This document shows positions 19,626-57,158 of a stretch of 64,000 nt of DNA, piece by piece. This stretch comes from Streptomyces changanensis (GTDB taxonomy: Bacteria; Actinomycetota; Actinomycetes; Streptomycetales; Streptomycetaceae), in assembly GCF_024600715.1 (NCBI RefSeq), contig NZ_CP102332.1, positions 2,046,001-2,110,000 on the forward strand, in the 5' to 3' direction. Position 1 is the stretch's first letter. Each line of letters starts with the position of its first letter. A model generated the notes under the pieces. It saw only the letters and a program-made list of their open reading frames with translations. It was not told where the DNA came from and searched no databases. The translations under genes were made by a program, and so were the position numbers.

Positions 19626-19634
19626 CCTTGACTG

Positions 19635-19707
<73 letters not shown>

Positions 19708-41707: not shown

Positions 41708-42310
41708 GTGAACTACAGGGTCCAGCCCACCGCCCAGGTCGACGAGACCGCCGAGATCGGGGCCGGGAGCAGCGTCTGGGAACTCGCGCAGATCCGTGAG
41801 AACGCCCGGCTCGGGGAAGGCTGCGTGGTCGGCCGCGGCGCGTACGTCGGTACGGGCGTGCGGATCGGTGACAACGTCAAGCTGCAGAACTACGCGCTGG
41901 TCTACGAGCCGGCCGAGCTGGGTGACGGGGTGTTCGTCGGCCCCGCCGTGGTGCTGACCAACGACCACAACCCCCGCTCCGTCGACCCCGAGGGCAAGCA
42001 GAAGCGGGGCGGCGACTGGGAGGCCGTGGGCGTGAAGGTCGCCGAGGGCGCCTCGCTCGGGGCCCGTTCGGTGTGTGTCGCGCCGGTGCGCGTCGGTCGC
42101 TGGGCGATGGTCGCCGCGGGTGCCGTCGTCACGCGCGACGTTCCGGACTTCGGGCTCGTCGTGGGTGTGCCGGCGAAGCGGATCGGGTGGGTCGGCCGGG
42201 CCGGTGTGCGGCTGGTCGAGCGGGCCGGTGAAGCGGGCGTCTGGGAGTGCCCGCAGACCGGCGCCGTGTACGTGGAAGAGGACGGCGTCCTCTCCGAGCG
42301 CGAGGGCTGA
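41708..42310 (+). CDS. WbpD-like UDP-amino-uronate N-acetyltransferase (left-handed beta-helix)
   Basis: A 200-aa hexapeptide-repeat acyltransferase: VDETAEIGAGSSVWELAQIR, GEGCVVGRGAYVGTGVRIGD, KLQNYALVYEPAELGDGVFV, GPAVVLTNDHNPRSVDPEGK and VAAGAVVTRDVPDFGLVVGV. The NDHNPR stretch and the 'WELAQIRENARLGE' opening are typical of WbpD/WlbB enzymes, which acetylate UDP-GlcNAc(3NH2)A at N3 using acetyl-CoA. The C-terminal 40 residues (VWECPQTGAVYVEEDGVL) also match this subfamily. GTG at 41708 has only a weak AGAGA upstream; TATGCT at 41657-41662 may be the -10. It complements the WbpA/B/E-like operon at 52-57 kb. Confidence 0.82.
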   Translation: MNYRVQPTAQVDETAEIGAGSSVWELAQIRENARLGEGCVVGRGAYVGTGVRIGDNVKLQNYALVYEPAELGDGVFVGPAVVLTNDHNPRSVDPEGKQKRGGDWEAVGVKVAEGASLGARSVCVAPVRVGRWAMVAAGAVVTRDVPDFGLVVGVPAKRIGWVGRAGVRLVERAGEAGVWECPQTGAVYVEEDGVLSEREG

Positions 42311-42451
42311 CGGCGCCCCGGCCGCGTGCCGGGAGGGGGCACCGCCTTCGGTAGGGTGGTGCCGCCGCGCTGTATCTCCGTATCGAACCCCGTGATGACG
42401 CTTCCGCCGCACGGGTGCGCGGCGTGCAGGTGAAAGGGCGAAGGGATCCAG

Positions 42452-44701
42452 ATGAACAGCCACGTGCTCTATCTCGCGCTTGGCACATACCGAGTACGGG
42501 CGACCCGCGAGCAGGTGCAGGAGCTCGCGGCCTCGGGGTCCCGGGTCTCCCTGGTGGTGCTGGACGCTCCCGAGTGGCGCGAGGCGCTTCAGGAGCTCGG
42601 CCGGGTCGACGGCGTGGACGTGATCCGTGTCGCTCCGGACAAGGACGGCCACGCGTGGACGTCCGCCAAGAAGCTCGCCGCCGCGAAGTCGGGCCCGTTC
42701 GCACAGGCCGACGTGGTCGTCGCGGGTGACGCCCAGGCGCTGCCCGTGGCGTGGATCGCCAAGCGCCGCCGGCCGGGTGTCGAGCTGCGGCTGGAGCCGC
42801 ACGGCGCGGGCCGGGTCGTGGAGCCCGCGGACCTGGCGGTGCTGACGCCGTGGTACCCGTCGCCGAACAACCCGTACGCCGGGTCGTTCGTGCAGGCCGC
42901 GACGGCGGCGGTGGCCGGGCAGTTCGCCCGGGTGTCCGTCTTCCACACCGAGGACTGGTCCGGCCGCGCGTCGGCCCCGCTCAACGACGCGATCCGGGTG
43001 ACCGTCGACCGCCTCCAGGAGCGCCGGGCCCTCGGCCACGTGCTGGACGCCGACGAGGGCACGATCGTCCGGGTCCCGGTGCCGCTCATCCACCGCCGCC
43101 TCTACGCGCCCTGGGTCAACGCCCAGGTCAAGGCGTTGCGCAGTGCCCTGCCGACGGGGCAGATCGAGGCGCCCGTCGTCCACGCCCACACCGGCATCTA
43201 CGGGGGTGTGCTGGCCGCCCGGCTGGCCCGGCCCGACGCCCGCGTCGTGGTGACCGAGCACTCCTCCTTCCTCGACAAGGTCTTCTCCCAGCGCCCGGCC
43301 GTGCGGATGTACGAGGAGATGCTGGAGCGCGCCGACGCCGTCCTGTGCGTGAGCTCCGCGCTGCGCGAGCAGGTCGTGGGCCGCTTCCCGGAGTACGCCC
43401 ACAAGGTCGGCGTGGTGCCGAACGCCATCGCCCTGGACCGCTTCACGCCCGGTGGTGACCGCTCCCCCGAGCTGCTGCGCTGGCTGTACATCGGCCGGCT
43501 GGTGCAGCCGAAGGGCGTCGGCGAGCTGCTGGAGGCGTTCGCGCTGGTCGCCGCCGACGAGCCGCGCGCGACGCTCACCATGGTCGGTCACGGCCCCGTC
43601 GAGGAGGAGCTGCGCGCCCGCGCCGCCGAACTCGGCCTGGGCGAGCGCTTCCGGATCCTGCCGCCCGTCGCGCCGGAGGCCGTGGGCCCGCTGATGCACG
43701 AGTACGACCTGCTGGTGCACGCGAGCAAGCGGGAGACCTTCGGGATGACGGTCGTCGAGGCCATCGCCTCCGGCCTGCCCGTGCTCGCCACCCGCAGCGG
43801 GGGCCCCGAGGAGACGCTGGCCGGCATCGAGTCGGCGGCCGGTGCGCTGATGGACGTCAGCGACGACCCGCGGGTCATCGTCGACGCCTACCGGGCGCTC
43901 CGCGCGCGCGCCTCCGAGCTCGACCTGCCCGCGGCGCGCACGGCGCTGGAGGGCCGGGTCGGCTGCGAGGCCGTCGGCAAGCAGATCGTGGAGGTGTACG
44001 GGGGCGCGCTGCCGCCCGTACCGCCCGCGCCGTCCGCCGAGGCGGAGGAGGGGGCGGCCGCGCTCACCGAGGTCGCGGGGGCGGCAGAGGTGGCCGAGGA
44101 CGCGGGTGCGGCCGTCGTCCGCCGCGACGGCGAGCCCGTCGGGCGGGCCGTGGTCCTGGCGCTGACGCCCGCGAAGCCGCGGCGCATCGTCGACTTCGCC
44201 AACCACCTGGTGGGCAAGGGCGTCGAGGTCACCCTCGTCACGGCCCAGGCGCCCCTGCTGTGGGAGCGGCTGGACCTGGACCCGAGCGTGCCGGTCGTGA
44301 GTGTCGGGGACGCCGAGAAGAAGCTGCGGATCCCGCGCGCCGAGCGGTTCCTCGTGTACCGCGCGCCCCGCGCCGTGCTGCGCCGGGCGCGGCGGCTCGC
44401 CGCGAAGAACCGTGAGGCGATCGGCCCCGAGCTGGCCGTGGCGACCGTGCAGCGGGCGCACACGAAGGTCGCCAACGCCTTCCACAAGAAGGTCTTCACC
44501 CGCGGTTACAAGGAGGTCAGGCCGCAGCTGTTCGCGCGCATCGCCAAGCGGCGGGTGCTGCCGGAGCTGGGCCTCGACCGGGTGGACACGGTGTTCGTCA
44601 GCGACATCAACTCCACGGTGACGGGCTGGAAGTGGGCGAAGTCCCACCCGCACCTGAAGGTGACGACGAGCCTGGACCGCACGGCGTACGACCCGGAGTG
44701 A
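42452..44701 (+). CDS. Three-part GT4 glycosyltransferase (N-terminal Rossmann-like + GT4 + C-terminal domain)
   Basis: A 749-aa protein. Residues 1-125 open VLYLALGTYRVRATREQVQE and look like a Rossmann-type domain. Residues 125-540 are a GT4 core: VLTPWYPSPNNPYAGSFVQA, VVHAHTGIYGGVLAARL, VTEHSSFLDKVFSQ, LYIGRLVQPKGVGELLEAF and VHASKRETFGMTVVEAIASG. After an Ala/Glu linker, residues about 568-749 (GRAVVLALTPAKPRRIVDFA to TVTGWKWAKSHPHLKVTTSL) resemble the separate 192-aa protein at 46402. The same GT4 and accessory modules occur unfused at 46990 and 46402. ATG at 42452 follows GAAGGG. It ends at a 33-bp hairpin. Substrates unknown. Confidence 0.8.
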   Translation: MNSHVLYLALGTYRVRATREQVQELAASGSRVSLVVLDAPEWREALQELGRVDGVDVIRVAPDKDGHAWTSAKKLAAAKSGPFAQADVVVAGDAQALPVAWIAKRRRPGVELRLEPHGAGRVVEPADLAVLTPWYPSPNNPYAGSFVQAATAAVAGQFARVSVFHTEDWSGRASAPLNDAIRVTVDRLQERRALGHVLDADEGTIVRVPVPLIHRRLYAPWVNAQVKALRSALPTGQIEAPVVHAHTGIYGGVLAARLARPDARVVVTEHSSFLDKVFSQRPAVRMYEEMLERADAVLCVSSALREQVVGRFPEYAHKVGVVPNAIALDRFTPGGDRSPELLRWLYIGRLVQPKGVGELLEAFALVAADEPRATLTMVGHGPVEEELRARAAELGLGERFRILPPVAPEAVGPLMHEYDLLVHASKRETFGMTVVEAIASGLPVLATRSGGPEETLAGIESAAGALMDVSDDPRVIVDAYRALRARASELDLPAARTALEGRVGCEAVGKQIVEVYGGALPPVPPAPSAEAEEGAAALTEVAGAAEVAEDAGAAVVRRDGEPVGRAVVLALTPAKPRRIVDFANHLVGKGVEVTLVTAQAPLLWERLDLDPSVPVVSVGDAEKKLRIPRAERFLVYRAPRAVLRRARRLAAKNREAIGPELAVATVQRAHTKVANAFHKKVFTRGYKEVRPQLFARIAKRRVLPELGLDRVDTVFVSDINSTVTGWKWAKSHPHLKVTTSLDRTAYDPE

Positions 44702-44723
44702 CACCGCGGGCGGTGACGCCCCG

Positions 44724-44792
44724 GCGCGAGACGCACGACATGAGGCCCCCGACCGGATTCCGGTCGGGGGCCTCATGTCGTGCGTCTCGCGC
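44724..44792. terminator. 33-bp perfect inverted repeat (bidirectional terminator)
   Basis: Arms 44724-44756 and 44760-44792 are exact reverse complements (33 bp, beginning GCGCGAGACGCACGACATGA) around an ATT loop. It lies between two convergent glycosyltransferase genes, 22 nt after the + strand stop. This is unusually long and perfect for a terminator. Confidence 0.85.
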
Positions 44793-44898
44793 GTCGCGCG
44801 CCGTCCGCGCCATCTTCCTCATCCGCGGCGCGCTTCTCGCGCGGGGCGCCGGCGGCGCCGCCTTGGGGGCGGGGCCGCCGGCAGGCCGTCAGCCGGCC

Positions 44899-46383
44899 TC
44901 AGCGTTCGACGATCTCCCGCAGGCGCTGCTCGAACGGGGCGAGCGTCGCCTCACGCGTGTAGGTGTCGGCGTGGCGCCGCGCCGCCGCGCGCTGGTCGGG
45001 CGTCAGGTCACGGGCGGCCTTGCCCGCGGCGACCATCGACGCGGCCAGCTCCTCGACGTCCAGGCTGTCGGCGTTGAACCACAGCGGGTACCCGTCGAGC
45101 ACGTCCTGCGCGGCGATGCCGGGCTGGTGGACGGAGACGATCGGGTGCCCGAAGGCCATGTACTCGAAGATCTTGCCGGAGGTGACGTACCTGCCGCCGC
45201 CCGCGAGGAAGACGAGGACGTCGGCCTCCTCGTAGACCTTGCCGACCTCGGTCTTGGAGACGGGGCCGCAGTAGCGCAGCCCGGTGTCCTCGACGCCCTC
45301 GGGGCGCGGGCCGTCCTGGAGGCCGAGGCGGGCCTTGAGGGCGCCGGGGCTGTTCTTGAAGAAGCCGAGGTGGCCGTGGATCTGCAACTCGGCGTCGGCC
45401 AGGTCGGGGTGGCGCCGGGCGATCTTGAACGCCTCGGCCATCTCCTCCACCGGCTGCTTCGCGGTGAGCGTGCCGAGGTACGTGAACTTCAGCGGGGCGC
45501 GCCGCTCCTGCGCCGCCTCCGCCCCCGTGACCGCCTCCGCCGCCGCGACCGCCTCGGCGGCCGCCGCGGCGACGCCGTCCCCGCCGGCCGCCGTGTCACC
45601 GGCCGCCGTGCCGCCGTCACCGTCACCGGCGGCGGGCAGCTCACCGGCGGCCTTCTCGACGACCTTCGGCAGCACGTCCGCGTCCCAGCCGTTGGGCACG
45701 ACCATCATGCGGTCGGCGACCTCCGGGTAGCGCTCGGCGTGCCAGCCGCGCAGGGCCTCGTTGACGAAGACGGACGCGGCCGCCTTGCCGATCATGCGCT
45801 TCTCCCACGCCCAGGCGATGTGCCCCTCGGGGAAGGCCGGCTCGTCGTGGAAGAGGTCGAGGGTCCAGGAGTCGCGGTAGTCCATGACGTACGGGACGCC
45901 CGTGAGCTTGTTGAACAGCCAGGCGGCGCCGAACGAGGCGAACGGGTTGCCGGTGGCGACCACGACGTCGAAGCGGTCCTTGGCGTGCAGCTTCAGCGCC
46001 CGCGTGACCGATGCCCACGCCCAGGACGAGTAGCGCTCGGGGAAGAGCTTCGTCTGGCTGAACTCGTAGACGCGCTTGGCCGTCAGCGGGAAGCTGCGCC
46101 GCAGCCAGCTGTAGTCGCGCAGGTCCTGCTGCCAGGTGTACTGGTTGAGGGACGGCCGCTCCACGCGGATGCGCGGGTCGACGGTCTTCGACAGCTCCTC
46201 GTCCACGGAGCCGATCACGTTGTGGAGGAAGTCCAGCGGGGCCGCGCAGACGGTGACGTCCCAGCCCTTCTCCACGAGGTGGTTGGCGGTGGCGCGGGCG
46301 CGGTAGACACCGCTCGCGCGCGACGGGGGGAAGTAGAACGCCAGGTAGAGCACACGGGGGCGCCGTTCGCTACGGTTCTTCAT
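44899..46383 (-). CDS. GT4-type glycosyltransferase with an Ala/Gly-rich insertion
   Basis: A 494-aa GT-B enzyme: VLYLAFYFPPSRASGVYRAR, VVVATGNPFASFGAAWLFNK, DYRDSWTLDLFHDEPAF, VVPNGWDADVLPKVV, LKFTYLGTLTAKQPVEEMAE and YVTSGKIFEYMAFGHPIVSV. The GKIFEYMAFGHPI segment is the nucleotide-sugar-binding helix of WbuB-like glycosyltransferases. Between the two Rossmann domains (about 244-296) is a low-complexity insert of Ala/Gly/Asp/Glu (AAGDGDGGTAAGDTAAGGDG). ATG at 46383 has GAGGAAG upstream. It is the last gene of a three-gene minus-strand unit starting at 48195. Confidence 0.82.
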   Translation of the reverse strand: MKNRSERRPRVLYLAFYFPPSRASGVYRARATANHLVEKGWDVTVCAAPLDFLHNVIGSVDEELSKTVDPRIRVERPSLNQYTWQQDLRDYSWLRRSFPLTAKRVYEFSQTKLFPERYSSWAWASVTRALKLHAKDRFDVVVATGNPFASFGAAWLFNKLTGVPYVMDYRDSWTLDLFHDEPAFPEGHIAWAWEKRMIGKAAASVFVNEALRGWHAERYPEVADRMMVVPNGWDADVLPKVVEKAAGELPAAGDGDGGTAAGDTAAGGDGVAAAAAEAVAAAEAVTGAEAAQERRAPLKFTYLGTLTAKQPVEEMAEAFKIARRHPDLADAELQIHGHLGFFKNSPGALKARLGLQDGPRPEGVEDTGLRYCGPVSKTEVGKVYEEADVLVFLAGGGRYVTSGKIFEYMAFGHPIVSVHQPGIAAQDVLDGYPLWFNADSLDVEELAASMVAAGKAARDLTPDQRAAARRHADTYTREATLAPFEQRLREIVER

Positions 46384-46401
46384 CAGTCTTCCTCGGTTGG
46401 G

Positions 46402-46980
46402 TCAGCGAGCGGCTGAGGTCTGCGGGGCCGTCCGGGCGACGACCGGCGGTACGACGGAATCGACGCTGTAGCACAGGCGCGGGGTTCCCAGGCCCTCGGC
46501 GGCCCAGGCGTCCATCATCTCCGCGGCGGTGCGCGTCGACAGGGCGTCGGCGACGACGACGAGGTCGGGGCCGCCCTGCGGGCCGAAGCAGCGGCGGAGG
46601 ATCATGCGGGCGGCCGCGGTCGGCCAGACCCTGCGGTGCAGCGGCACGAACACGCGGCGGTGCACACGGCCGGCGACCCGCTTCTCGTACGCCGTGAGGG
46701 CCTTCCGGGCGCCGGCGCCCAGGGGTCCGCGGCCGACGACGCCGGCGACGCGGCGGGGGCCCTGGTAGAGCACCGCCCGCTCCAGCCGGCGGGGCAGGTG
46801 CCTGGCCTCCAGGTCGGCGAGGGTGAGCAGTTCGACTCCGGGGGCGAACACCTCGCTCGCCCAGGGCTGCTTCCGGCCGACCAGGACGACGGCCCGGCCG
46901 CCGGCGGCGGCCACCGCGGCGGACTCTTCGACCACGGCCCGCTTGCGCGAGGCGCCGAGGGCCAGGAACAGAACCTGCAT
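46402..46980 (-). CDS. Stand-alone accessory domain homologous to the C-terminus of the 749-aa glycosyltransferase
   Basis: A 192-aa protein: MQVLFLALGASRKRAVVEES, VAAAGGRAVVLVGRKQPWAS, ERAVLYQGPRRVAGVVG, KRVAGRVHRRVFVPLHRRVW and LVVVADALSTRTAAEMMDAW. Its layout (GRAVVL..., RAxLYxxPRxV, a run of basic helices, D-x-V-x-V-x-D-x(2)-ST) parallels residues 568-749 of the 42452 protein. No complete catalytic domain is visible, so it may be a partner subunit or substrate-recognition module. ATG at 46980 lies 9 nt after the GT4 gene's stop with TGGAG upstream, so the genes are coupled. Function unknown. Confidence 0.7.
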   Translation of the reverse strand: MQVLFLALGASRKRAVVEESAAVAAAGGRAVVLVGRKQPWASEVFAPGVELLTLADLEARHLPRRLERAVLYQGPRRVAGVVGRGPLGAGARKALTAYEKRVAGRVHRRVFVPLHRRVWPTAAARMILRRCFGPQGGPDLVVVADALSTRTAAEMMDAWAAEGLGTPRLCYSVDSVVPPVVARTAPQTSAAR

Positions 46981-46989
46981 GTCACTCCA

Positions 46990-48195: not shown

Positions 48196-48235
48196 GTCGA
48201 CTTCCTTACGAGATTGCGCGGCGACGCGCCACTTT

Positions 48236-48263: not shown

Positions 48264-48321
48264 CCGGACCGGCCCGGACCCGGCCGTGAGGCGGGTCCGG
48301 GCGCGGCCTCGCGGGCGGCCG

Positions 48322-49428
48322 TCAGCCGTCGTTGCGGACGGTGCTCTGCCATTCCTCGAGGATGCGGACGACGTTGTGCGCGGCGCGCCCGTCGCCGTAC
48401 GGGATGCCCTTGTCGGCGGTGGGGACGGCGCGGGTGACGGTGGCGGCCCACTCGTCGGCGGACATGAGGTGCGGGTCCGGGACGAGGACGTTCCAGCCGG
48501 TGTCGACGGTCTCGACCCACTCCGTCTCGGGGCGGATGGTGGTGGTGATGCGCTCCAGCAGGAACGCCTCCTTCTGCAGGCCGCCGGAGTCGGTGACGAC
48601 GCCGGCCGAGGCCAGGACGGCGGCGACGAGGCCGGCGTACGGCAGCGGGCGGCCGACGTGGACGGAGCCCTTGGCGAGCTCGATGCCGTGCTTCTGCGCG
48701 CGGGCGACGAGCCGCGGGTGGGCGAGCAGGGCGACCGGCAGGGGCAGCGCGGCGAGCGCGTCGACGATGGCGGCGAGCCGCTCGGGGTCGTCGGTGTTGT
48801 CCGGCCGGTGCAGGGTGGCCAGCAGGAAGGGCTGCGTGGGGTCGATGCCCTCGGGCAGCGCCGGGGCGGCGTGCTCGCCGGCGAGGACGGCGTCGCGGAT
48901 GCGCAGGCAGATGTCGACCATGACGTCGCCCGCGAGGACCGCGCGGTCCTTCAGGCCCTCGTCGGCGAGGTGGCGCATGGCCTCCTCGGTCGGGGCGAGG
49001 AGCACATCGGCGCAGTGGTCGGTGAGGACGCGGTTGTGCTCCTCCGGCATGCGCCGGTTGAAGGAGCGCAGGCCCGCCTCCAGGTGCGCGACGGGCAGGT
49101 GCATCTTCACGGCGGAGAGGGCGCCGGCGATGGTGGAGTTGGTGTCGCCGTAGACGAGGACCCAGTCGGGCTTCTCCCGCTCCAGGACCGGGTCGAGCGC
49201 GGAGAGCACGGAGCCGGTCTGGACGCCGTGGCTGCCCGAGCCGACGCCGAGGTGGACGTCCGGGTCGGGGATGCCGAGACCCTGGAAGAAGACGTCCGAG
49301 AGGTCGGCGTCGTAGTGCTGCCCGGTGTGCACAATGAAGTGCTCGTGCTCCGTCCCTGCGAACGCGGCCGCGATGGGCGCGAGCTTCACCAGTTGGGGAC
49401 GGGCGCCGACGATGCTGATGACTTTCAC
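48322..49428 (-). CDS. WbpI-like non-hydrolysing UDP-sugar 2-epimerase
   Basis: A 368-aa enzyme of the UDP-GlcNAc 2-epimerase family: VISIVGARPQLVKLAPIAAA, VHTGQHYDADLSDVFFQGLG, VLVYGDTNSTIAGALSAVKM, AHLEAGLRSFNRRMPEEHNR, VVTDSGGLQKEAFLLERITT and RPETEWVETVDTGWNVLV. The GTHG-like GSHGVQTGSVL and the ETEWVE segment fit the WbpI branch, which epimerises UDP-GlcNAc(3NAc)A to UDP-ManNAc(3NAc)A, at least as well as WecB, which acts on UDP-GlcNAc; sequence alone does not settle this. GTG at 49428 has GAAGAG upstream. It is divergent from the propeller-like gene at 49629. Confidence 0.85.
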   Translation of the reverse strand: MKVISIVGARPQLVKLAPIAAAFAGTEHEHFIVHTGQHYDADLSDVFFQGLGIPDPDVHLGVGSGSHGVQTGSVLSALDPVLEREKPDWVLVYGDTNSTIAGALSAVKMHLPVAHLEAGLRSFNRRMPEEHNRVLTDHCADVLLAPTEEAMRHLADEGLKDRAVLAGDVMVDICLRIRDAVLAGEHAAPALPEGIDPTQPFLLATLHRPDNTDDPERLAAIVDALAALPLPVALLAHPRLVARAQKHGIELAKGSVHVGRPLPYAGLVAAVLASAGVVTDSGGLQKEAFLLERITTTIRPETEWVETVDTGWNVLVPDPHLMSADEWAATVTRAVPTADKGIPYGDGRAAHNVVRILEEWQSTVRNDG

Positions 49429-49628
49429 TGCGCACTCTTCTTCTGGGTCAGGCCGATGAGGGGCACGGCCATGGTATGCCCGCGGCCGGCGTGCTCGGTG
49501 CCCACCCCGTCCGCCGTGACCGGTCCGGCCGGAATGCGAGATGCTAGGGTCGCGCGCGCCTGAGAAGAGGATCACTCACTCGCGGTACGGGTACGCGGTA
49601 CGGGTACAGGGAAAGGTCGGCGTCAGCC

Positions 49629-50837
49629 ATGGCGGTCTTGTTCGTACGGAAAGCCAGAAAGCGGGCCGGCGAGTCCGCCCCAGCCGAGGAGGCGCCGCAG
49701 GCGGTCCTCGACCCGTCGGTGCCGGCGGCCACCGGCTGGCTGGTGCGCGGCAAGGACGGCCGGCTGACGGCGTACGCCCCGGGTGACGGCGGTGTGCTGC
49801 GCTGGACGGAGACCCGGCCGGGCGGCCCCCACTGGACGGGGCCCGAGCTGATCCCGGCACCGGGGCTGCTGCCGTACGTGGCGGTCGCCCAGGGCGCCGA
49901 CGGCTACGTCCACCTGGTGGGCCTGCGGCGGGCGCCGCTGCCGGACGGGCGGACGGGCACCGAGGTCGTGTACGCCCTGCAGTACCAGTCGGGTCGGCCG
50001 GTGCGGGACTGGCGGCCGCTCGGGTCCCCCTATCCGGCGGACCCCTCGCTCGCCGCGCAGATGGGCCACCCGTCCGCCGTGGTCGACACCGACGGGTCGC
50101 TCAACGTCTTCGTCCGCAACGCCGGCGGCGGGGTCTGCGCCCGCAGCCAGGCGAAGACCGGCGCCTGGAACGCCTGGGTGGACCTCAAGGGCGCGGACGT
50201 GCGGGGCACGGTGTCGGCGGCGCTCGCCGGGGACGGCCGGGTGGAGGTCCTGGCGGCGGCGTCGGACCGGCTGCTGCGCTGGGAGCGGGAGAAGCCGGGC
50301 GTGCGGTTCGAGCGGGCGCCGGACGTGTCCCTGCGGGCGGCGCCCTCCTCGGCGGCCGCGGCCGTCACGGGCGGGGACGGCGGGCTGAGCCACTTCTGGC
50401 ACGACGCCGACGACCGTACGGTACGGGCCTGGCGCCCGCCGGCGGAGGCCGTCGCGGGGTCCGAGGGGCCTGAGGACGCGCGGGAGGCGGACCCGGTGGC
50501 CGCCGCCGGAGGGGCCGCGCGGCTCGGGGACGGGACGGGCACGGGCCCGGTGGCCGTGCTGCGGACGGTCGTCGACGGCCACGACTGCACGGTGGTGGCG
50601 CACCGCGACGAGGCGACGGGACGGTCGGCGCTGGCCGCGTACCCGACGGAGGACGAGGGTGCCGGCGCCAGTTGGACGCTCACCGGCGGTCCCTGCCTGG
50701 GGGCGCCCGCGCTGGCGCTGGACGGCGCGGGGCGCGTGGTGATGGCCGTGATCGGTACGGACGGCGCGCTGTGGGTGGCCCGGCAGAAGGACGAGTCGGG
50801 GCTCGCGCTCGGCGCCTGGGTCCGCGCCTCGGCCTGA
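49629..50837 (+). CDS. Predicted beta-propeller (PLL-like) protein of unknown function
   Basis: A 402-aa cytoplasmic-looking protein with no signal peptide. It is built of repeated strands with Asp-Gly turns and Trp-containing motifs: TAYAPGDGGVLRWTETRPGG, PYVAVAQGADGYVHLVGLRR, HPSAVVDTDGSLNVFVRNAG, VRGTVSAALAGDGRVEVLAA, TGGDGGLSHFWHDADDRTVR and LALDGAGRVVMAVIGTDGAL. The spacing of about 45-50 residues suggests a six- or seven-bladed propeller like the PLL/tachylectin-2 fold, which often binds sugars. A Glu/Ala-rich insert lies near 275-300. ATG at 49629; the Shine-Dalgarno (GGAAAGG) is far. TAGGGT near 49552 may be the -10. Its place inside the glycan block suggests a carbohydrate role, but this is inference. 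Confidence 0.7.
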   Translation: MAVLFVRKARKRAGESAPAEEAPQAVLDPSVPAATGWLVRGKDGRLTAYAPGDGGVLRWTETRPGGPHWTGPELIPAPGLLPYVAVAQGADGYVHLVGLRRAPLPDGRTGTEVVYALQYQSGRPVRDWRPLGSPYPADPSLAAQMGHPSAVVDTDGSLNVFVRNAGGGVCARSQAKTGAWNAWVDLKGADVRGTVSAALAGDGRVEVLAAASDRLLRWEREKPGVRFERAPDVSLRAAPSSAAAAVTGGDGGLSHFWHDADDRTVRAWRPPAEAVAGSEGPEDAREADPVAAAGGAARLGDGTGTGPVAVLRTVVDGHDCTVVAHRDEATGRSALAAYPTEDEGAGASWTLTGGPCLGAPALALDGAGRVVMAVIGTDGALWVARQKDESGLALGAWVRASA

Positions 50838-50993
50838 GCCGTTCCGGCACGGCTCTCCGACGGGCGCCGTGCCGGTCCGGTCCGGGGCGCGGCGCCGGGC
50901 CGGTCGGCGGGCGGGGCGCCGGGCCGGGCCGACCGGGTCGCGTCCGGTCGGGTCAGGCGTACGTGCCGATCCGGCCCCGGGAAGGCCGGCGGC

Positions 50994-51060
50994 CGATCAG
51001 GCCCCGTCCGGTGCGGACGCCCGATCAGGCCCCGTCCGGGGTGGACGCCCGGTCAGGCCG
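50994..51060. repeat. 28-bp tandem repeat at the 3' end of the GalE-like gene
   Basis: Unit CGATCAGGCCCCGTCCGG plus about 10 bp (50994-51021) is repeated at 51022-51049 with two changes, and begins a third time (CGGTCAGGCC) at 51050, running into the stop codon of the GalE-like gene. The remaining gap 50838-50993 holds no gene. Confidence 0.65.
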
Positions 51061-52021
51061 GGTGGCGCAGGCGCCAGCCCGCCCAGGCCGACGCGACCAT
51101 CTCGCGCACGCCGTACCGGGCCGTCCACCCCAGCTCCGCGCGGACCAGGTCGGACGAGGCGACGACGCGGGCGGGGTCGCCCGGCCGGCGGGGGGCGACC
51201 TCCGGGGTGGCCGGCAGTCCGGTCACCTCCCCGATGACGTCGATCATCTCGGTGACCGAGACGCCCTCGCCACGGCCCACGTTGAGGACGAGCGAGGCCC
51301 CCGGGTCGGCGGCGAGCCGCCGCGCGGCGGCGAGGTGGGCGGAGGCGATGTCCTCGATGTGGATGTAGTCGCGCACGCACGTGCCGTCGGGCGTGGCGTA
51401 GTCGTCGCCGAAGACCAGCGGCGCCCGGCCGGCGGTGAGCCGCTCGAAGACCATGGGCACGAGGTTGTGCGCGCCGTCGTCGGCGAGTTCGGGGGCGGCG
51501 GCGCCGGCCACGTTGAAGTAGCGCAGCGCGGCGGTCGCCATGCCGTGGGTCCGGCCGACCGCGCCGACCATCCACTCCCCCGCGAGCTTGGTCTCGCCGT
51601 ACGGGTTGATGGGCCGGCAGGGGGTCTCCTCGGTGACGAGGTCGACGTCGGGCGTCCCGTACACGGCGGCCGACGAGGAGAACAGGAACCTGCCGACGCC
51701 GGCCGCGACGGCGGCGTCGAGCAGGACGCGCAGGCCCTCGACGTTCTGCCGGTAGTAGAAGAGCGGCCGGGCGACGGACTCGGCGACCTGCTTCTTCGCC
51801 GCGACGTGCACGATCCCGGTGACGGCGTGCTCGCGCAGGACCCGGTCGAGGAAGTCCCGGTCGAGGACCGTGCCGGTCTCCAGCGGAACCCCGGCGGGCA
51901 GCCGGTCGGCGCGCCCGGAGCTCAGGTCGTCGACGACGACGACGCCTTCGCCGGCCCCGGCCATCGCCCGCACCACGTGCGAGCCGATGAATCCGGCACC
52001 TCCGGTGATCATCCAGGTCAT
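51053..52021 (-). CDS. galE: UDP-glucose 4-epimerase-like extended SDR
   Basis: A 322-aa extended short-chain dehydrogenase: MTWMITGGAGFIGSHVVRAM (NAD-binding TGGAGFIG), HVAAKKQVAESV, FLFSSSAAVYGTPD, INPYGETKLAGEW (catalytic YxxxK), RYFNVAGAA and VRDYIHIEDIASAHLAA. These are GalE features; the enzyme would interconvert UDP-Glc/UDP-Gal or the GlcNAc/GalNAc forms. Given its operon it may supply a hexose or hexosamine for the wall polymer. ATG at 52021 has AGGAGG 7 nt upstream. An 87-nt gap with a hairpin (52046-52075) separates it from the UDP-sugar dehydrogenase. Confidence 0.85.
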   Translation of the reverse strand: MTWMITGGAGFIGSHVVRAMAGAGEGVVVVDDLSSGRADRLPAGVPLETGTVLDRDFLDRVLREHAVTGIVHVAAKKQVAESVARPLFYYRQNVEGLRVLLDAAVAAGVGRFLFSSSAAVYGTPDVDLVTEETPCRPINPYGETKLAGEWMVGAVGRTHGMATAALRYFNVAGAAAPELADDGAHNLVPMVFERLTAGRAPLVFGDDYATPDGTCVRDYIHIEDIASAHLAAARRLAADPGASLVLNVGRGEGVSVTEMIDVIGEVTGLPATPEVAPRRPGDPARVVASSDLVRAELGWTARYGVREMVASAWAGWRLRHPA

Positions 52022-52045
52022 CGTGGAACCTCCTACGAGAAACGA

Positions 52046-52075
52046 CCCTGCCCCGCCTGGCGGGGCGGGACAGGG
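52046..52075 (-). terminator. Intercistronic hairpin upstream of the GalE-like gene
   Basis: CCCTG (52046-52050) pairs with CAGGG (52071-52075), and the inner CCCCGCC with GGGGCGG, with a small offset. It lies inside the minus-strand operon, so it may reduce downstream expression. Confidence 0.5.
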
Positions 52076-52108
52076 CCTGGCGACCTCGGTCGCCGCGGGA
52101 CCGGGCCG

Positions 52109-53392
52109 TCAGCCGCCGATGACGACGCGGCGGACACCCTCCCAGCGGGCCGGGTCGGTGGTGCGCCGGCCGTCGACCAGGACCTTCACGTCCGGCAGGT
52201 CGGAGGCGGCCAGCTCGCGGTACTCGGCGTGGTCGGCCTGGAGGATCGCCGCGGTGACCTTCTCCCCCTTGTGGGGGGTCAGGCCGTGGGCGGCGAGCTC
52301 CTCGTCCGTGTACATCGGGTCGGAGACGTACGCGACGGCGCCGCGCGCCGTGAGGGCCTCGACGGTCGGGAAGACGCCGGAGAAGGCGGTCTCCTTCACG
52401 CCGCCGCGGTAGGCGGCGCCCAGCACGAGCACGGGGACGTCCTTCAGGTCGCCGTAGGCGGCGGCCAGCAGGTCGACGGCGTACTCCGGCATCGCGGCGT
52501 TCGCCTCGCGGGCGGAGCGGACGACGGTCGCCTCCGGGTCGTTCCACAGGTACATCCGCGGGTAGATCGGGATGCAGTGGCCGCCGACGGCGATGCCGGG
52601 CTGGTGGATGTGGCTGTAGGGCTGGGAGTTGCAGGCCTCGATGACCTTCTTGACGTCGATGTCGTTCTTGTCGGCGAACCGGGCGAACTGGTTCGCCAGG
52701 CCGATGTTGACGTCGCGGTAGGTGGTCTCGGCGAGCTTGGCCAGCTCGGACGCCTCGGCGGTGCCGAGGTCCCACACGCCGTTCGGCTGCGGCAGGTCGG
52801 CGCGCTCGTCGAAGTCGAGGACCTGCTCGTAGAACTCGACGCCGCGGCGGCCGGACGCCTCGTCGATGCCGCCGACGAGCTTGGGGTAGCGGCGCAGGTC
52901 GGCGAAGACGCGGCCGGTGAGGACCCGCTCCGGGGAGAAGACGAGGTGGAAGTCCTCGCCCGCGGTGAGGCCGGAGCCCTCCTCCAGCATCGGCGCCCAG
53001 CGGGTGCGGGTGGTGCCGACCGGCAGGGTCGTCTCGTACGAGACGAGGGTGCCCGGCTTGAGGCCCTTGGCGATGGCCTTGGTGGCGGAGTCCATCCAGC
53101 CGAAGTCGGGGGTGCCCTCGGCGTCCACGAACAGCGGGACGACCACGACGACGGCCTCGGACTGCGCGACCGCGGCGGCGGTGTCGGTGGTGGCGGTGAG
53201 CAGCCCGGCGTCGACGGCCTTCTTCAGCTTGACGTCCAGGTCGTGCTCGCCGGGGAAGGGCTCGGTGCCGGCGTTGACCAGCTCCACGACCTTCTCGTTG
53301 ACGTCGGCGCCGATGACCTTGTGGCCCTTGTCGGCGAACTGCACGGCGAGCGGCAGACCGATCTTGCCGAGCGCGACTACACAGATGTTCAT
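52109..53392 (-). CDS. WbpA-like UDP-N-acetyl-hexosamine 6-dehydrogenase
   Basis: A 427-aa UDP-glucose/GDP-mannose dehydrogenase-family enzyme. The NAD-binding NICVVALGKIGLPLAVQFAD has an AlaLeu-for-Gly variant of the GxGxxG motif. Also seen: ETTLPVGTTRTRWAPMLEE, FSPERVLTGR, AELAKLAETTYRDVNIGL-type helix, and catalytic C273 in GIAVGGHCIPIYPRMYLW. Such enzymes oxidise UDP-GlcNAc or UDP-ManNAc to the uronic acid; the WbpB/E/D/I-like neighbours favour UDP-GlcNAc. The ATG at 53392 overlaps the stop of the preceding glycosyltransferase (ATGA). The C-terminal domain is complete (VLGAAYRGGVKETAFSG). Confidence 0.85.
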   Translation of the reverse strand: MNICVVALGKIGLPLAVQFADKGHKVIGADVNEKVVELVNAGTEPFPGEHDLDVKLKKAVDAGLLTATTDTAAAVAQSEAVVVVVPLFVDAEGTPDFGWMDSATKAIAKGLKPGTLVSYETTLPVGTTRTRWAPMLEEGSGLTAGEDFHLVFSPERVLTGRVFADLRRYPKLVGGIDEASGRRGVEFYEQVLDFDERADLPQPNGVWDLGTAEASELAKLAETTYRDVNIGLANQFARFADKNDIDVKKVIEACNSQPYSHIHQPGIAVGGHCIPIYPRMYLWNDPEATVVRSAREANAAMPEYAVDLLAAAYGDLKDVPVLVLGAAYRGGVKETAFSGVFPTVEALTARGAVAYVSDPMYTDEELAAHGLTPHKGEKVTAAILQADHAEYRELAASDLPDVKVLVDGRRTTDPARWEGVRRVVIGG

Positions 53393-55017
53393 CGGGTCAG
53401 TTTCCTCTTCACACGGGACAGGACGCGGCGCAGTCGCAGGCCGGCGCCGGGCGAGGGCTCCCAGAGCGGAGCCGTGGTGATGACCAGCCGCCCCTTGGCG
53501 TTGGCGGTGGCGGAGACGCGGTACGGGACCTTCTCGCGCCAGCGCCGGGCCAGGGGCAGCGGCACCCCCTGGGTCTTCACGGGGATCTCGTACGTCGAGC
53601 CTGCCACATCCAGGTAGGCGCGGACGCCGAGCTTGGCGCGGGCCGGCTGGAGGGGGATGCGGGCGAGCAGGTGGGTGCCGGTGCCGTCGGGGGCCGGCTC
53701 CTGGCTCGACTCGCCCTTGCGGGCGGGGAGTTCGACGCCGACGGGGACGCGCCGACCGCCGGGCTTGTCGGTGCTCTTCGGCAGGGCCTTGGCGGCCAGG
53801 CGGACGGAGGCGGTGTCGGTCTCGCCGGTGACGGGCACCCGGACGGCGAGGGAGACGGCGAGGTCGTCGCCGCTCTGCTCCCAGGCGGCGGAGACCAGGC
53901 GGGTGCCGTCGGCGAGCTGCCGGGGCACCGCCTCACCGATCACCTCGAAGAGCCGGTCGGGCAGCCCGAGGGCCGGGTCGCGGAAGCCGGGGTAGCGGAC
54001 GTAGGCGCGGCCGTCCTCCAGCAGGAGCGGCGGGGCGCCGTGCGCCGCCTCGTCCTCGATGGCGCGGACGAGGTGGTCGAGGGCGCCGCGCTGGGCGAGG
54101 GCGATCCGCACCCGCCGCTTGACGTCCATGGAGTCGCGGAGCGCCTCCGTGAAGTACGCGTCGGCCAGTTCGGCGATGCCGGCGCACACCTCGGTGCGCG
54201 TGGCCGCGTCGAGGGACGGGAAGTCGTCCTGGATCAGCTTGGCGAGCTCCCAGGTGAAGTGGCGCACGAAGACCGCGTCCCGCTGCGGCCCGGCCTCGAT
54301 CAGCCCGGCCGCGTGCTCCATGATCCGTGCGGTGCAGCGCAGCCGCGACAGGTGGTCGGCGCGGTAGGTGATGTTGGACGAGTCGCCGCGCTTCACCGCG
54401 TAGTAGCAGGTGTAGTCGGCGAGGACGGACACCTTCCGGGCGCGGACGCACGCCTCTATGGTGAACGGCTGGTCGGAGCCGACCGGCAGGTCCTCGGGGA
54501 AGCGCAGCTTGTGCTGCTCGACGAGGTCGCGCCGGAACAGCTTGGTATTGGCCAGCGTGAACGGCAGCGCCGAGTCGTACAGGCTGACGTCGGGGTCGTT
54601 GCGCTGGAAGAGCGCCTGGTGGACGTAGCGGCCGTTGGTGCCGACCATCTTGCCGACGACGACGTCGGAGTCGTGCCGGTCGGCGTAGTCGACCATGCGT
54701 TCCAGGGCCTCGCGGCCGAGGTGGTCGTCGGAACCGATGAAGTAGACGTACCGGCCGGTGGCCACCTCCAGGGCCCGGTTGCTGGGAGCGGCCGGGCCAC
54801 CGGAGTTGGCCTGGTGGATGACCTTCACGACGCCGGGGTACCGCTCCGCGAAGCGGTCGAGTTCCCGGCCGCTGTCGTCGGTCGAGCCGTCGTCGACGGC
54901 CACGACCTCCAGGCGGTCCCTGCCGATGCTCTGCTTGACGAGCGAGTTCAGGCACTCCGTCAGGTAGGGCATGGTGTTGTAGACCGCCACGACGACGGTG
55001 ACATCAGGTCTGGTCAA
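53389..55017 (-). CDS. TarS-like GT2 glycosyltransferase (teichoic-acid type)
   Basis: A 542-aa protein. Residues 1-330 are a GT-A/GT2 domain: VTVVVAVYNTMPYLTECLNS, VVAVDDGSTDDSG, ANSGGPAAPSNRALEVATGR, YFIGSDDHLGREALER and EDLPVGSDQPFTIEACVRAR. The last places an Asp at 182, equivalent to the catalytic base region (AEDQ) I remember from S. aureus TarS, and NSGGP, KMVGTNGR and YYAVKR also match TarS. Residues about 330-542 form beta-rich C-terminal domains like the TarS trimerisation region. TarS adds GlcNAc to poly(ribitol-phosphate). The start is TTG at 55017, 13 nt after the preceding stop; GGGG lies upstream. It sits inside the amino-uronate operon. Confidence 0.8.
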   Translation of the reverse strand: MTRPDVTVVVAVYNTMPYLTECLNSLVKQSIGRDRLEVVAVDDGSTDDSGRELDRFAERYPGVVKVIHQANSGGPAAPSNRALEVATGRYVYFIGSDDHLGREALERMVDYADRHDSDVVVGKMVGTNGRYVHQALFQRNDPDVSLYDSALPFTLANTKLFRRDLVEQHKLRFPEDLPVGSDQPFTIEACVRARKVSVLADYTCYYAVKRGDSSNITYRADHLSRLRCTARIMEHAAGLIEAGPQRDAVFVRHFTWELAKLIQDDFPSLDAATRTEVCAGIAELADAYFTEALRDSMDVKRRVRIALAQRGALDHLVRAIEDEAAHGAPPLLLEDGRAYVRYPGFRDPALGLPDRLFEVIGEAVPRQLADGTRLVSAAWEQSGDDLAVSLAVRVPVTGETDTASVRLAAKALPKSTDKPGGRRVPVGVELPARKGESSQEPAPDGTGTHLLARIPLQPARAKLGVRAYLDVAGSTYEIPVKTQGVPLPLARRWREKVPYRVSATANAKGRLVITTAPLWEPSPGAGLRLRRVLSRVKRKLTR

Positions 55018-55029
55018 GGGAGACTACCC

Positions 55030-56043
55030 CTACCCCTTTGCGGAGCCGTTGAGACGGACGGTGTCGCCGGTGGCGGCCGACTCCAGGACGGCCGCGGCGA
55101 CCTCCACGGTACGCAGGCCCTGGCGGAGCGTGCAGATGTCGTCGGACTTGCCGAGGACGGCGTCGCGGAACAGCTCGTGCTCGACGAGGAGCGGCTCGCG
55201 CTTCGGGATGGCGTACCGGACCATGTCGCCCTCGGCGACGCCGCGGAAGGCGCGCAGGGCCTCCCACTCGGTGGCGACGGCGGCGTTGGAGTAGAAGGTC
55301 AGGTCGGCGGTGAGGGTGTCGGCGATGAAGCAGCCGCGCTCGCCGGTGACCGAGGTGAAGCGCTCCTTGAGCGGGCTCAGCCAGTTGACGAGGTGGTTGA
55401 CCATCGTGCCGTCGGAGAGCTGGCCGACGGCGGAGACCATGTCCTCGTGCGGGCGGCCCGACTTGGAGACGGTGCGCGCGGCGATCGACGTGTACGTCTG
55501 GCCGGTGACCCAGCCGGTGAGGTCGATGTCGTGCGTCGCGAGGTCCTTGACGACGCCGACGTCCGCGATGCGGTGCGGGAAGGGGCCCTGGCGGCGGGTG
55601 ACGACCTGGAAGACGTCGCCCAGCTCGCCGGCCTCCAGGCGGGCGCGCAGGGAGCGCAGGGCGGGGTTGCACCGCTCGATGTGGCCGACGCCGGCCACCA
55701 GGTCGCGCGACTCGAACGCCTCGACGAGGCGGCGGGCGCCGTCGACGGTGTCCGCGACGGGCTTCTCGACGAGCGCGCACACGCCGGCCTCGGCCAGCTT
55801 CAGCCCGACCTCCTCGTGGAGGGCGGTCGGGCAGGCGACGACGGCGTAGTCGACGCCGAGCGCGAGCAGTTCCTCGACGGTGGCGAGGACGGGGGCGCCC
55901 TGCGCCCAGCCGTTCCTGTCGCCCATCGGGTCGACGACGCCGACGAGCTCCACGCCCTCCAGGCCGGCGAGCACGCGGGCGTGGTGGCGGCCCATGGAGC
56001 CGAGGCCGACGAGGCCGGCCCGGAGCGTTCCGGTGGCGGTCAC
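55030..56043 (-). CDS. WbpB-like Gfo/Idh/MocA oxidoreductase
   Basis: A 337-aa NAD-dependent oxidoreductase: AGLVGLGSMGRHHARVLAG (Rossmann motif at residues 9-27), AVVACPTALHEEVGLKLAEA, CALVEKPVADTVDGARRLVE (the EKP catalytic motif), VGHIERCNPALRSLRAR and KDLATHDIDLTGWVTGQ. The GHIERCNPA and THDID segments are those of WbpB/WlbA-type enzymes, which oxidise C3 of UDP-GlcNAcA before transamination. GTG at 56043 overlaps the stop of the aminotransferase gene (GTGA), so the pair is translationally coupled, as wbpB and wbpE act in one coupled reaction cycle. Confidence 0.85.
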   Translation of the reverse strand: MTATGTLRAGLVGLGSMGRHHARVLAGLEGVELVGVVDPMGDRNGWAQGAPVLATVEELLALGVDYAVVACPTALHEEVGLKLAEAGVCALVEKPVADTVDGARRLVEAFESRDLVAGVGHIERCNPALRSLRARLEAGELGDVFQVVTRRQGPFPHRIADVGVVKDLATHDIDLTGWVTGQTYTSIAARTVSKSGRPHEDMVSAVGQLSDGTMVNHLVNWLSPLKERFTSVTGERGCFIADTLTADLTFYSNAAVATEWEALRAFRGVAEGDMVRYAIPKREPLLVEHELFRDAVLGKSDDICTLRQGLRTVEVAAAVLESAATGDTVRLNGSAKG

Positions 56044-57158
56044 AGCTCCTCCCCCAGGGCGTTGACGGCGGTGACGATCCGCTCGAGGTCGTCCTGGGTG
56101 AGGGACGGGTGGACGGGGAGGGAGACGACCTCGGCCGCCGCCTTCTCCGTCTCCGGCAGGTCCCAGTCGCGGCCGGCCTTCTGGTCCGGCTCCCAGTACG
56201 GCTTGAGGCGGTGGATCGGCGTCGGGTAGTACACGGCGTTGCCGATGCCCGCCTCGGTCAGCTTCGCCATGGCGGCGTCGCGGTCTCCGCGGACGCGGAT
56301 CGTGTACTGGTGGAAGATGTGGCGCGCGCCCTCGGCGACCACGGGGGTCACCACGCCGGGCGCGGTGATGTGCTCGGTGAGGTACGCGGCGTTGGCGATG
56401 CGCTGCTCGGTCCAGCCGTGCAGCTTGGCCAGCTGGACACGGCCGACCGCGGCGGCGACGTCGGTCATGCGCATGTTGGCGCCGACGATCTCGTTGGCGT
56501 ACCGCTGCTCCATGCCCTGGTTGCGCAGGAGGCGCAGGGTGCGGGCGACCTCGGCGTCGCCGACCGAGACCATGCCGCCCTCCAGGGAGTGCATGTTCTT
56601 GGTCGGGTAGAAGCTGAAGGTGCCACCGGCGCCGAAGGCGCCCACGGGGGTGCCGTGGAGGGCCGCGGCGTGGGCCTGGCAGGCGTCCTCGACGACGGCC
56701 AGCTTGTGCTTGTCGGCGACGGCCATGATCTTGTCCATCGCGGCCGGGTGGCCGTACAGGTGCACCGGCATGATCGCGACCGTGCGCGGGGTGATGGCGG
56801 CCTCGACGGCGGCCGGGTCGAGGCAGAACGAGTCCGGCTCGATGTCGGCGAAGACGGCGTCGGCCCCGACGAGGCGGACCGCGTTCGCGGACGCGGCGAA
56901 GGAGAACGACGGCACGATGACCTCGTCACCCGGGCCGATGTTCAGGGCCATCAGAAGGAGGTGCAGCGCCGAGGTGCCCGAGTTGACGGCGACGCAGTGG
57001 CGGCCGTCGACCAGCTCCGCGAAGCTCTCCTCGAAGGCGGCCACCTCTGGGCCCTGCACGACGCGGCCGCTGCGCAGTACGCGTACGGCTGCCTCGATCT
57101 CCTCTTCACCGATGACCGGGCGGGCAGCGGGGATGGGCTGCTCGTTGACGCTCGGCAT
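56040..57158 (-). CDS. WbpE-like DegT/DnrJ/EryC1 aminotransferase
   Basis: A 372-aa PLP-dependent sugar aminotransferase: IPAARPVIGEEEIEAAVRVL, SGRVVQGPEVAAFEESFAEL, VNSGTSALHLLLMALNIGPG, VVEDACQAHAAALHGT (PLP-contacting D158/Q161) and SFYPTKNMHSLEGGMV with the PLP lysine at 187, ending in VYYPTPIHRLKPY. It fits the WbpE/WlbC group that places an amino group on C3 of a UDP-3-keto-uronate, with glutamate as donor. ATG at 57158 has AAGGAGG 7 nt upstream. It is the first gene of the operon 56040-55030-53389-52109-51053, transcribed away from an AT-richer 5' region at 57355-57430. Confidence 0.87.
   Translation of the reverse strand: MPSVNEQPIPAARPVIGEEEIEAAVRVLRSGRVVQGPEVAAFEESFAELVDGRHCVAVNSGTSALHLLLMALNIGPGDEVIVPSFSFAASANAVRLVGADAVFADIEPDSFCLDPAAVEAAITPRTVAIMPVHLYGHPAAMDKIMAVADKHKLAVVEDACQAHAAALHGTPVGAFGAGGTFSFYPTKNMHSLEGGMVSVGDAEVARTLRLLRNQGMEQRYANEIVGANMRMTDVAAAVGRVQLAKLHGWTEQRIANAAYLTEHITAPGVVTPVVAEGARHIFHQYTIRVRGDRDAAMAKLTEAGIGNAVYYPTPIHRLKPYWEPDQKAGRDWDLPETEKAAAEVVSLPVHPSLTQDDLERIVTAVNALGEEL

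What the first reader, a model, noticed from the sequence alone, without database searches (positions are those of the whole stretch)
41708..57158. All five enzyme types for UDP-2,3-diacetamido-mannuronic acid are present in one 15-kb block
WbpE-like aminotransferase (56040), WbpB-like oxidoreductase (55030, coupled by GTGA) and WbpA-like dehydrogenase (52109) form one operon; the WbpD-like acetyltransferase (41708) and WbpI-like epimerase (48322) lie in the same block. Together they match the Pseudomonas/Bordetella route UDP-GlcNAc to UDP-ManNAc(3NAc)A. This sugar in an actinomycete wall polymer is not standard textbook knowledge for Streptomyces.
Basis: partly seen in the sequence, partly recalled or inferred. 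Interest (0 to 1): 0.75.

Follow-up and report, generated by a model that had tools for sequence, protein, structure and literature searches.

The report
Streptomyces wall-sugar cluster, a utr locus
The block is a real gene cluster that very probably makes an unusual acidic amino sugar for a cell-wall polymer in a Streptomyces, but the same kind of cluster and its sugar were described in Streptomyces griseus in 2025, so this is a new, somewhat different member rather than a discovery.

Summary
Observation confirmed: the five enzyme genes are where stated, in a block between rne and rplU/obg beside ribitol teichoic acid genes. It is the utr locus that Zhao et al. (Cell 2025, PMC13274773) described in S. 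griseus, where NMR shows a polymer of GalNAc and ManNAc3NAcA on ribitol wall teichoic acid, the receptor of an umbrella toxin. So the sugar in a Streptomyces wall polymer is in print. The epimerase is of the UDP-GlcNAc3NAcA type (325 bits against 123 for WecB; Tyr96 and Trp307 kept, Ala18 not) and the only such match in the genome. The acetyltransferase is nearest PDB 3mqg. B, D and J co-occur in 31 of 150 Streptomyces genomes; the epimerase joins them in 15, which predicts ManNAc3NAcA versus GlcNAc3NAcA polymers. The window's glycosyltransferases differ from a griseus-type locus: no UtrI, no detectable UtrF, two paralogous GT4 genes instead. No chemistry exists for this strain.

The parts
56040..57158 (-). 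utrA homologue: DegT/DnrJ/EryC1 aminotransferase (C3 amination)
   Evidence: PF01041 410.7 bits; best PDB match 7b0d 297 bits, WbpE 3nyu 224 bits; ATG 57158 behind AGGAGG
55030..56043 (-). utrB homologue: Gfo/Idh/MocA 3-dehydrogenase, nearest to archaeal UDP-GlcNAc 3-dehydrogenase, not WbpB family
   Evidence: NF040723 192 bits, under its cut-off of 450; 7bvj 83 bits, no match to 3oa2 or 3o9z
53389..55017 (-). utrC homologue: GT2 glycosyltransferase with TarS linker domain; Asp182 invariant
   Evidence: PF00535, PF22181; Asp in 81 of 81 sequences, window included
52109..53392 (-). utrD homologue: nucleotide-sugar 6-dehydrogenase
   Evidence: TIGR03026 290 bits, over cut-off; 4r16 201 bits
51053..52021 (-). 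utrE homologue: GalE-type 4-epimerase (probably UDP-GalNAc supply)
   Evidence: TIGR01179 317 bits, over cut-off
49629..50837 (+). PLL-type beta-propeller protein without signal peptide, divergent from and next to utrH; role unknown
   Evidence: PLL lectins of the PDB, best E 5.7e-15; no Pfam family; model mean pLDDT 81.7, mostly strands; N-terminus conserved
48322..49428 (-). utrH homologue: UDP-GlcNAc3NAcA 2-epimerase (ORF opens at 49575; GTG at 49428 inferred from a homologue, L009)
   Evidence: 8sxv 325 bits against 1f6d 123 bits; Tyr96 and Trp307 kept; only Epimerase_2 match in the genome
46990..48240 (-). GT4 glycosyltransferase, paralogue of 42452
   Evidence: PF00534; 286-289 bits to 42452
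46402..46980 (-). 192-aa protein without a family match, lying among the GT genes
   Evidence: 82-93% conserved in L001-L003; no family
44899..46383 (-). utrG-like GT4 glycosyltransferase
   Evidence: PF13579; 239 bits to the gene in the G place of L078
42452..44701 (+). 749-aa GT4 glycosyltransferase
   Evidence: PF00534, PF13439
41708..42310 (+). utrJ homologue: LbH 3-N-acetyltransferase
   Evidence: 3mqg 156 bits, next best 80 bits
40733..41560 (+). GT2, perhaps a polyprenyl-phosphate sugar synthase (ORF opens at 40388; start chosen by me from a homologue)
   Evidence: PF00535; TIGR04182 and NF058614 below their cut-offs
39993..40313 (-). rplU (ribosomal protein L21), locus anchor
   Evidence: translation, recognised by eye, no family search; 92-96% identity in the related loci that reach it
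33752..35263 (-). TarI-TarJ-like fusion (CDP-ribitol synthesis)
   Evidence: PF01128 and PF00106 domains; D-ribitol-5-phosphate cytidylyltransferase model just under cut-off
31390..33612 (-). TagF-like protein
   Evidence: PF04464 22.8 bits, cut-off 22.1, a marginal match

Best explanation
The block is a utr locus. UtrB and UtrA turn the C3 hydroxyl of a UDP-GlcNAc-type sugar into an amine, UtrJ acetylates it, UtrD oxidises C6 (before or after; the order is open), giving UDP-GlcNAc3NAcA, and UtrH epimerises C2 to UDP-ManNAc3NAcA; UtrE supplies UDP-GalNAc. UtrC puts a first GlcNAc3NAcA on ribitol phosphate of the wall teichoic acid, and UtrG and the two GT4 enzymes extend a teichuronic-acid-like chain. 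Shown here: gene identities, the specificity residues of UtrH, co-occurrence and place in the genome. Shown by others in S. griseus: the polymer and its need for UtrC. Inferred: activity, order of steps and polymer structure in this strain.
For: Epimerase: 325 bits to T. thermophilus UDP-GlcNAc3NAcA 2-epimerase against 123 to WecB; Trp307 and Tyr96 kept in the window and in 45 of 45 utrH homologues of the 80 loci, where E. coli WecB has Arg and His. It is the only Epimerase_2 match in the genome. Acetyltransferase nearest 3mqg, 156 bits. B, D and J co-occur in 31 of 150 Streptomyces genomes. D is kept in 30 of 30 complete loci, 19 of which lack H, so D does not depend on the product of H, which argues against a UDP-ManNAc dehydrogenase. 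Same surroundings (L21, TarIJ, TagF) as named for S. griseus (PMC13274773 section 45). Published NMR structure with ManNAc3NAcA; carbohydrate signals strongly diminished or undetected in the utrC mutant (PMC13274773 section 8). A contiguous J-A-B-D-H set in Haloferax gibbonsii.
Against: No chemistry for this strain. The epimerase has Leu at position 18, as UDP-GlcNAc epimerases typically have Leu or Met, where the T. thermophilus enzyme has Ala (PMC10622841 section 10), and it passes the NCBIfam wecB cut-off. The dehydrogenase is nearest to UDP-ManNAc dehydrogenase-type enzymes by score. The genome holds two other NDP-sugar dehydrogenases over the cut-off. A J homologue at 72-81% identity occurs in 18 of 150 genomes that have no B at E 1e-60, so J alone proves little.
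Confidence: 0.88

Rival explanations
1. The genes make UDP-ManNAcA (WecB/WecC route) plus a separate 3-acetamido sugar, and not one diacetamido-uronic acid.
For: Dehydrogenase nearest to UDP-ManNAc dehydrogenase types; epimerase passes TIGR00236 wecB; a different Streptomyces locus does pair an epimerase, a dehydrogenase and a J homologue without B.
Against: Epimerase has Trp at 307 and Tyr at 96, unlike E. coli WecB (Arg, His) and unlike the two epimerases sampled from that other locus (Arg, Val); D is kept in 19 complete loci without H; the S. griseus polymer contains ManNAc3NAcA and that of S. antibioticus, without utrH, GlcNAc3NAcA (PMC13274773 sections 8, 10).
Confidence: 0.06
2. Variant of the best explanation, same product: the strict Pseudomonas order, C6 oxidation first and then a 3-dehydrogenase acting on UDP-GlcNAcA as WbpB does.
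For: Zhao et al. propose a P. aeruginosa-like pathway (PMC13274773 section 9); 3q2k and 3q2i, which I recall as WlbA enzymes acting on the uronic acid, are also matched, at 47.5 and 30.8 bits, so that function is not tied to one subgroup.
Against: UtrB is outside the WbpB group and nearer to the archaeal UDP-GlcNAc 3-dehydrogenase model (192 bits, under cut-off) and to 7bvj (83 bits); A-B pairs on two Streptomyces plasmids have no sugar dehydrogenase annotated within 12 kb (the rest of those genomes was not searched).
Confidence: 0.5
3. Secondary-metabolite tailoring genes rather than a wall polymer.
For: A-B pairs occur on plasmids beside a carrier-protein gene, a dioxygenase and a NUDIX gene.
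Against: Place beside rplU, TarIJ-like and TagF-like genes, UtrC with TarS linker and invariant Asp, and the S. griseus polymer.
Confidence: 0.02

Closest known systems
utr locus of Streptomyces griseus (Zhao et al., Cell 2025, PMC13274773)
   Same: utrA-E with the same functions, UtrG-, UtrH- and UtrJ-like genes, and L21, TarIJ and TagF nearby
   Different: no Acyl_transf_3 (UtrI-like) gene and no detectable UtrF homologue, judged through the griseus-like locus L078, as the S. griseus sequence itself was not in hand; two paralogous GT4 genes, a GT2 and a propeller gene instead; genes beyond E lie on both strands
wbpA/B/D/E/I of Pseudomonas aeruginosa and wlb of Bordetella
   Same: five enzyme types for UDP-ManNAc3NAcA; acetyltransferase nearest 3mqg (recalled by me as WlbB of B. 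petrii); aminotransferase 224 bits to WbpE
   Different: 3-dehydrogenase is not WbpB-family; product thought to go into a wall teichoic acid-linked polymer, not lipopolysaccharide
Haloferax gibbonsii pHGLR2 gene set J-A-B-D-H (L108)
   Same: all five types in a row; B also nearest 7bvj (164 bits); H with Tyr96 and Trp307
   Different: five genes contiguous; Ala at position 18 of the epimerase; identities 38, 44, 35, 38, 47% for J, A, B, D, H, that of J over 128 residues only
UDP-GlcNAc3NAcA 2-epimerase of Thermus thermophilus (8sxv; PMC10622841)
   Same: 325 bits; 16 of 17 active-site and allosteric residues checked are identical
   Different: Leu instead of Ala at position 18

Membership tests
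Streptomyces utr locus (teichuronic-acid-like polymer on wall teichoic acid) | utrA, B, C, D cluster near L21/L27 and TarIJ/TagF | tested here: met
   rplU recognised by eye, TagF match marginal, L27 not tested
Streptomyces utr locus (teichuronic-acid-like polymer on wall teichoic acid) | catalytic Asp of UtrC (D181 in S. griseus) | tested here: met
   Asp182 in 81 of 81 sequences; equivalence to D181 inferred from numbering, the S. griseus sequence was not in hand
Streptomyces utr locus (teichuronic-acid-like polymer on wall teichoic acid) | utrF and utrI present (griseus structure) | tested here: not met
   ten window proteins show no match at E 1e-3 to the genes in the F and I places of L078; no Acyl_transf_3 in the window ORFs scanned. 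S. antibioticus also lacks utrF and S. anulatus an O-acetyltransferase (PMC13274773), so this limits the polymer structure, not the locus assignment
Streptomyces utr locus (teichuronic-acid-like polymer on wall teichoic acid) | polymer on ribitol wall teichoic acid | not testable with these tools
   needs wall chemistry
UDP-GlcNAc3NAcA 2-epimerase (WbpI function) | Trp in place of the conserved Arg (307), Tyr at 96, Ala at 18 | tested here: inconclusive
   two of three met; Leu at 18. Overall score clearly on this side
WbpB family | sequence group of 3oa2 and 3o9z | tested here: not met
   neither is among the 60 PDB matches at E 1e-3; phmmer 20 bits to 3o9z and none to 3oa2, blastp 37 and 23 bits; separate group 100/100
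archaeal UDP-GlcNAc 3-dehydrogenase NF040723 | curated score of 450 bits | tested here: not met
   192 bits, best of the 7 models matched but under the cut-off
WbpD/WlbB acetyltransferase | nearest solved relative 3mqg over the full length (its identity as WlbB is recalled) | tested here: met
   residues 5-194 of 200, 156 bits
WbpA / WecC dehydrogenases | substrate UDP-GlcNAc(3NAc) against UDP-ManNAc | tested here: inconclusive
   sequence nearer to UDP-ManNAc dehydrogenase models; WbpA itself was not in hand; retention without H argues otherwise

The most novel reading that the evidence does not exclude
Actinobacteria and haloarchaea make UDP-GlcNAc3NAcA by a different route from Pseudomonas: a GnnA/archaeal-type enzyme oxidises C3 of UDP-GlcNAc itself, the 3-amino group is installed and acetylated, and only then is C6 oxidised; presence or absence of the last gene, utrH, switches the wall polymer between manno and gluco forms, and so the receptor seen by umbrella toxins.
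Probability: 0.4. Interest if true: 0.45.

Novelty: new member of a known kind. Interest (0 to 1): 0.3.

Why it matters
These polymers help decide which Streptomyces are hit by umbrella toxins, so reading the polymer from the genes is useful. The points that I did not find in the parts of the Cell paper that I read are that the 3-dehydrogenase is not WbpB-like and that the same five enzyme types lie in a row in a haloarchaeon, which makes the order of steps an open, easily tested question. The paper's Table S3, which analyses the Utr proteins, was not seen.

Tried and rejected
Chance grouping: rejected by conservation. WecB identity of the epimerase: rejected on score, residues and the absence of any other such match in the genome. 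The minus-strand ORFs 49623-50603 and 50030-50683: rejected in favour of the plus-strand gene 49629-50837, which has the better codon bias, fills the gap and is better conserved. A propeller specific to utr: not supported as a family, since 118 of 150 Streptomyces genomes hold a relative at E 1e-20 (the list of places is capped); of the 15 genomes with utrH, the listed places put it beside utrH in 3 (G000, G006, G094), and among the 80 loci it is found in 13, all with utrH. The tree of B has a long unreliable branch (3euw falls inside the actinobacterial group), so only the separation of the WbpB group is used. Structure prediction of UtrB and fold search of the propeller did not run.
Full report
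WHAT IS THERE. The five ORFs are present as described. On the minus strand run A (56040-57158), B (55030-56043), C (53389-55017), D (52109-53392) and E (51053-52021); A/B and C/D overlap by GTGA and ATGA. Then follow a plus-strand propeller gene (49629-50837), H (48322-49428, minus) and a minus-strand set 46990, 46402, 44899; then plus-strand genes 42452, 41708 (J) and 40733. The block is bounded by rne (57495) and rplU (39993, recognised by eye), with obg (38158), a TarI-TarJ-like fusion (33752) and a TagF-like gene (31390, marginal Pfam match) beyond.

WHAT EACH ENZYME IS. Epimerase: best PDB relative is the T. thermophilus UDP-GlcNAc3NAcA 2-epimerase, 325 bits; E. coli WecB scores 123. PMC10622841 (abstract listing, passages and section 10 seen) names three positions that set this substrate apart: Trp307, Tyr96 and Ala18. 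The window has Trp, Tyr and Leu; so have 45 of 45 utrH homologues found in the 80 loci (bit score over 300). E. coli WecB has Arg, His, Met. So two of three are met. It is the only Epimerase_2 match in the 6.9-Mb genome. Acetyltransferase: 3mqg, 156 bits, next 80. Aminotransferase: 7b0d 297 bits, WbpE 224 bits. Dehydrogenase: TIGR03026 over its cut-off; nearer to two UDP-ManNAc dehydrogenase models (250 and 192 bits) than to TviB (97 bits), all three below their cut-offs; 4r16 201 bits, Cap5O 173 bits. Its substrate cannot be read from sequence. Context helps: D is present in 30 of 30 complete loci, H in 11 of 30.

THE OXIDOREDUCTASE IS NOT WbpB. Its 60 PDB matches at E 1e-3, all listed, include neither P. 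aeruginosa WbpB (3oa2) nor T. thermophilus WbpB (3o9z); the best is 7bvj with 83 bits (recalled by me as the UDP-GlcNAc 3-dehydrogenase GnnA; the tool names it only an NAD-binding oxidoreductase), and 3q2k has 47.5. As a check that the method can see WbpB, the Deinococcus radiophilus enzyme from a comparable cluster scores 426 and 346 bits to those two, and the Haloferax enzyme scores 164 to 7bvj. Against a small set UtrB scores, by phmmer, 124 to the Haloferax enzyme, 82 to 7bvj, 71 to an inositol dehydrogenase, 20 to T. thermophilus WbpB, 17 to the Deinococcus enzyme and nothing to P. aeruginosa WbpB; in the tree the WbpB group has support 100/100, while the pair Haloferax and 7bvj has 94/83 and stands beside, not within, the actinobacterial rows. 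By BLASTP the inositol dehydrogenase (87 bits) even outscores 7bvj (76 bits), so 'GnnA-like' is a lead, not a result. The NCBIfam model for the archaeal UDP-GlcNAc 3-dehydrogenase is the best model at 192 bits, under its cut-off of 450; the next, inositol 2-dehydrogenase, has 88. Some databases already call close homologues UDP-N-acetylglucosamine 3-dehydrogenase (names, of which 120 of 7999 hits were listed).

IT IS KNOWN. PMC13274773 (abstract, passages, sections 8, 9, 10 and 45 and part 1 of section 49 read; supplements not seen) describes utrA-J in S. griseus with the same predicted roles, a polymer of GalNAc and ManNAc3NAcA on ribitol teichoic acid, carbohydrate signals strongly diminished or undetected in the utrC mutant, and a GlcNAc3NAcA homopolymer in S. 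antibioticus, which lacks utrE, F and H. It cites earlier structures from S. lavendulocolor and S. griseus. In PMC11481543 (passages only), on a Streptomyces wall-polymer ligase, the word stems searched for mannuronic and teichuronic acid do not occur. Searches made for prior work.

HOW THE WINDOW DIFFERS. The S. griseus sequence itself was not in hand; L078 (Streptomyces sp. McG3) shows the order that the paper describes, A-E, then on the other strand genes in the places F, G, H, I (Acyl_transf_3) and J, and an FG-GAP protein beyond. Against it the window has a G homologue (239 bits) but no detectable F or I; instead two paralogous GT4 genes, 42452 and 46990 (286-289 bits to each other), and a GT2 with a close relative in L004 (434 bits). 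A different repeating unit is therefore likely; which one cannot be said.

DISTRIBUTION. In 150 Streptomyces genomes: B at 60% identity or more in 32, D in 31, J (72% or more) in those same 31, H (67% or more) in 15 of the 31 (counted by me from the listed rows; A was not searched there). The 32nd B is G075, which groups with plasmid copies. Of the 15 H genes, 13 lie within 8 kb of B, one is on another contig (G062) and one is 2.5 Mb away (G110). UtrC at 68% or more is in 26 of the 31; four have 49-53% matches and one (G136) none at E 1e-60. In 296 genomes of the phylum B is found in 18 at E 1e-50, in 12 genera; of the 13 loci outside Streptomyces, fetched at 2.8-4 kb, 7 show A and 9 show J beside it. 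Plasmid searches: H in 45 records, 17 of the 25 listed being haloarchaea; B in 71. Haloferax gibbonsii has J-A-B-D-H in a row, with 38 (over 128 residues), 44, 35, 38 and 47% identity to the window.

AGAINST MY READING. Leu18 in the epimerase; a dehydrogenase that sequence alone would call WecC-like; a J homologue at 72-81% in 18 genomes that lack B at E 1e-60, 11 of which have an epimerase of 41-43% identity within 5 kb (two of these were shown by residues to be WecB-like at 307); and no chemistry for this strain. The 80 loci are the best 80 of 194 found with UtrC as bait, so C is present by construction, and the 30 complete ones are biased to short loci.

Noticed in passing
window 49629-50837: PLL-type beta-propeller protein without signal peptide, divergent from utrH; among the 80 loci it occurs in 13, all with utrH, although relatives are widespread in Streptomyces (118 of 150 genomes).
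   Followed up: partly
L099-L102: A second Streptomyces polysaccharide locus pairs a 78-81% identical utrJ homologue with an epimerase (39-41%) and a dehydrogenase (34%), without utrB; 18 of 150 genomes hold such a J homologue.
   Followed up: partly
L110:10880-13014, L111:10889-13020: Two Streptomyces plasmids carry an A-B pair (B 61-62%) beside a NUDIX gene, a phosphopantetheine-binding protein, an FAD-linked oxidoreductase and a TauD-like dioxygenase; perhaps a 3-amino-sugar cassette of a natural product.
   Followed up: no
L108:2853-8077: Haloferax gibbonsii plasmid pHGLR2 has all five enzyme types in a row.
   Followed up: partly
L104:7785-8885: In G110 a 67% identical utrH lies 2.5 Mb from utrB, near another aminotransferase gene.
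   Followed up: no
window 17424-17497 and 19634-19707: Two tRNA-Ala genes with the same anticodon GGC about 2 kb apart.
   Followed up: no
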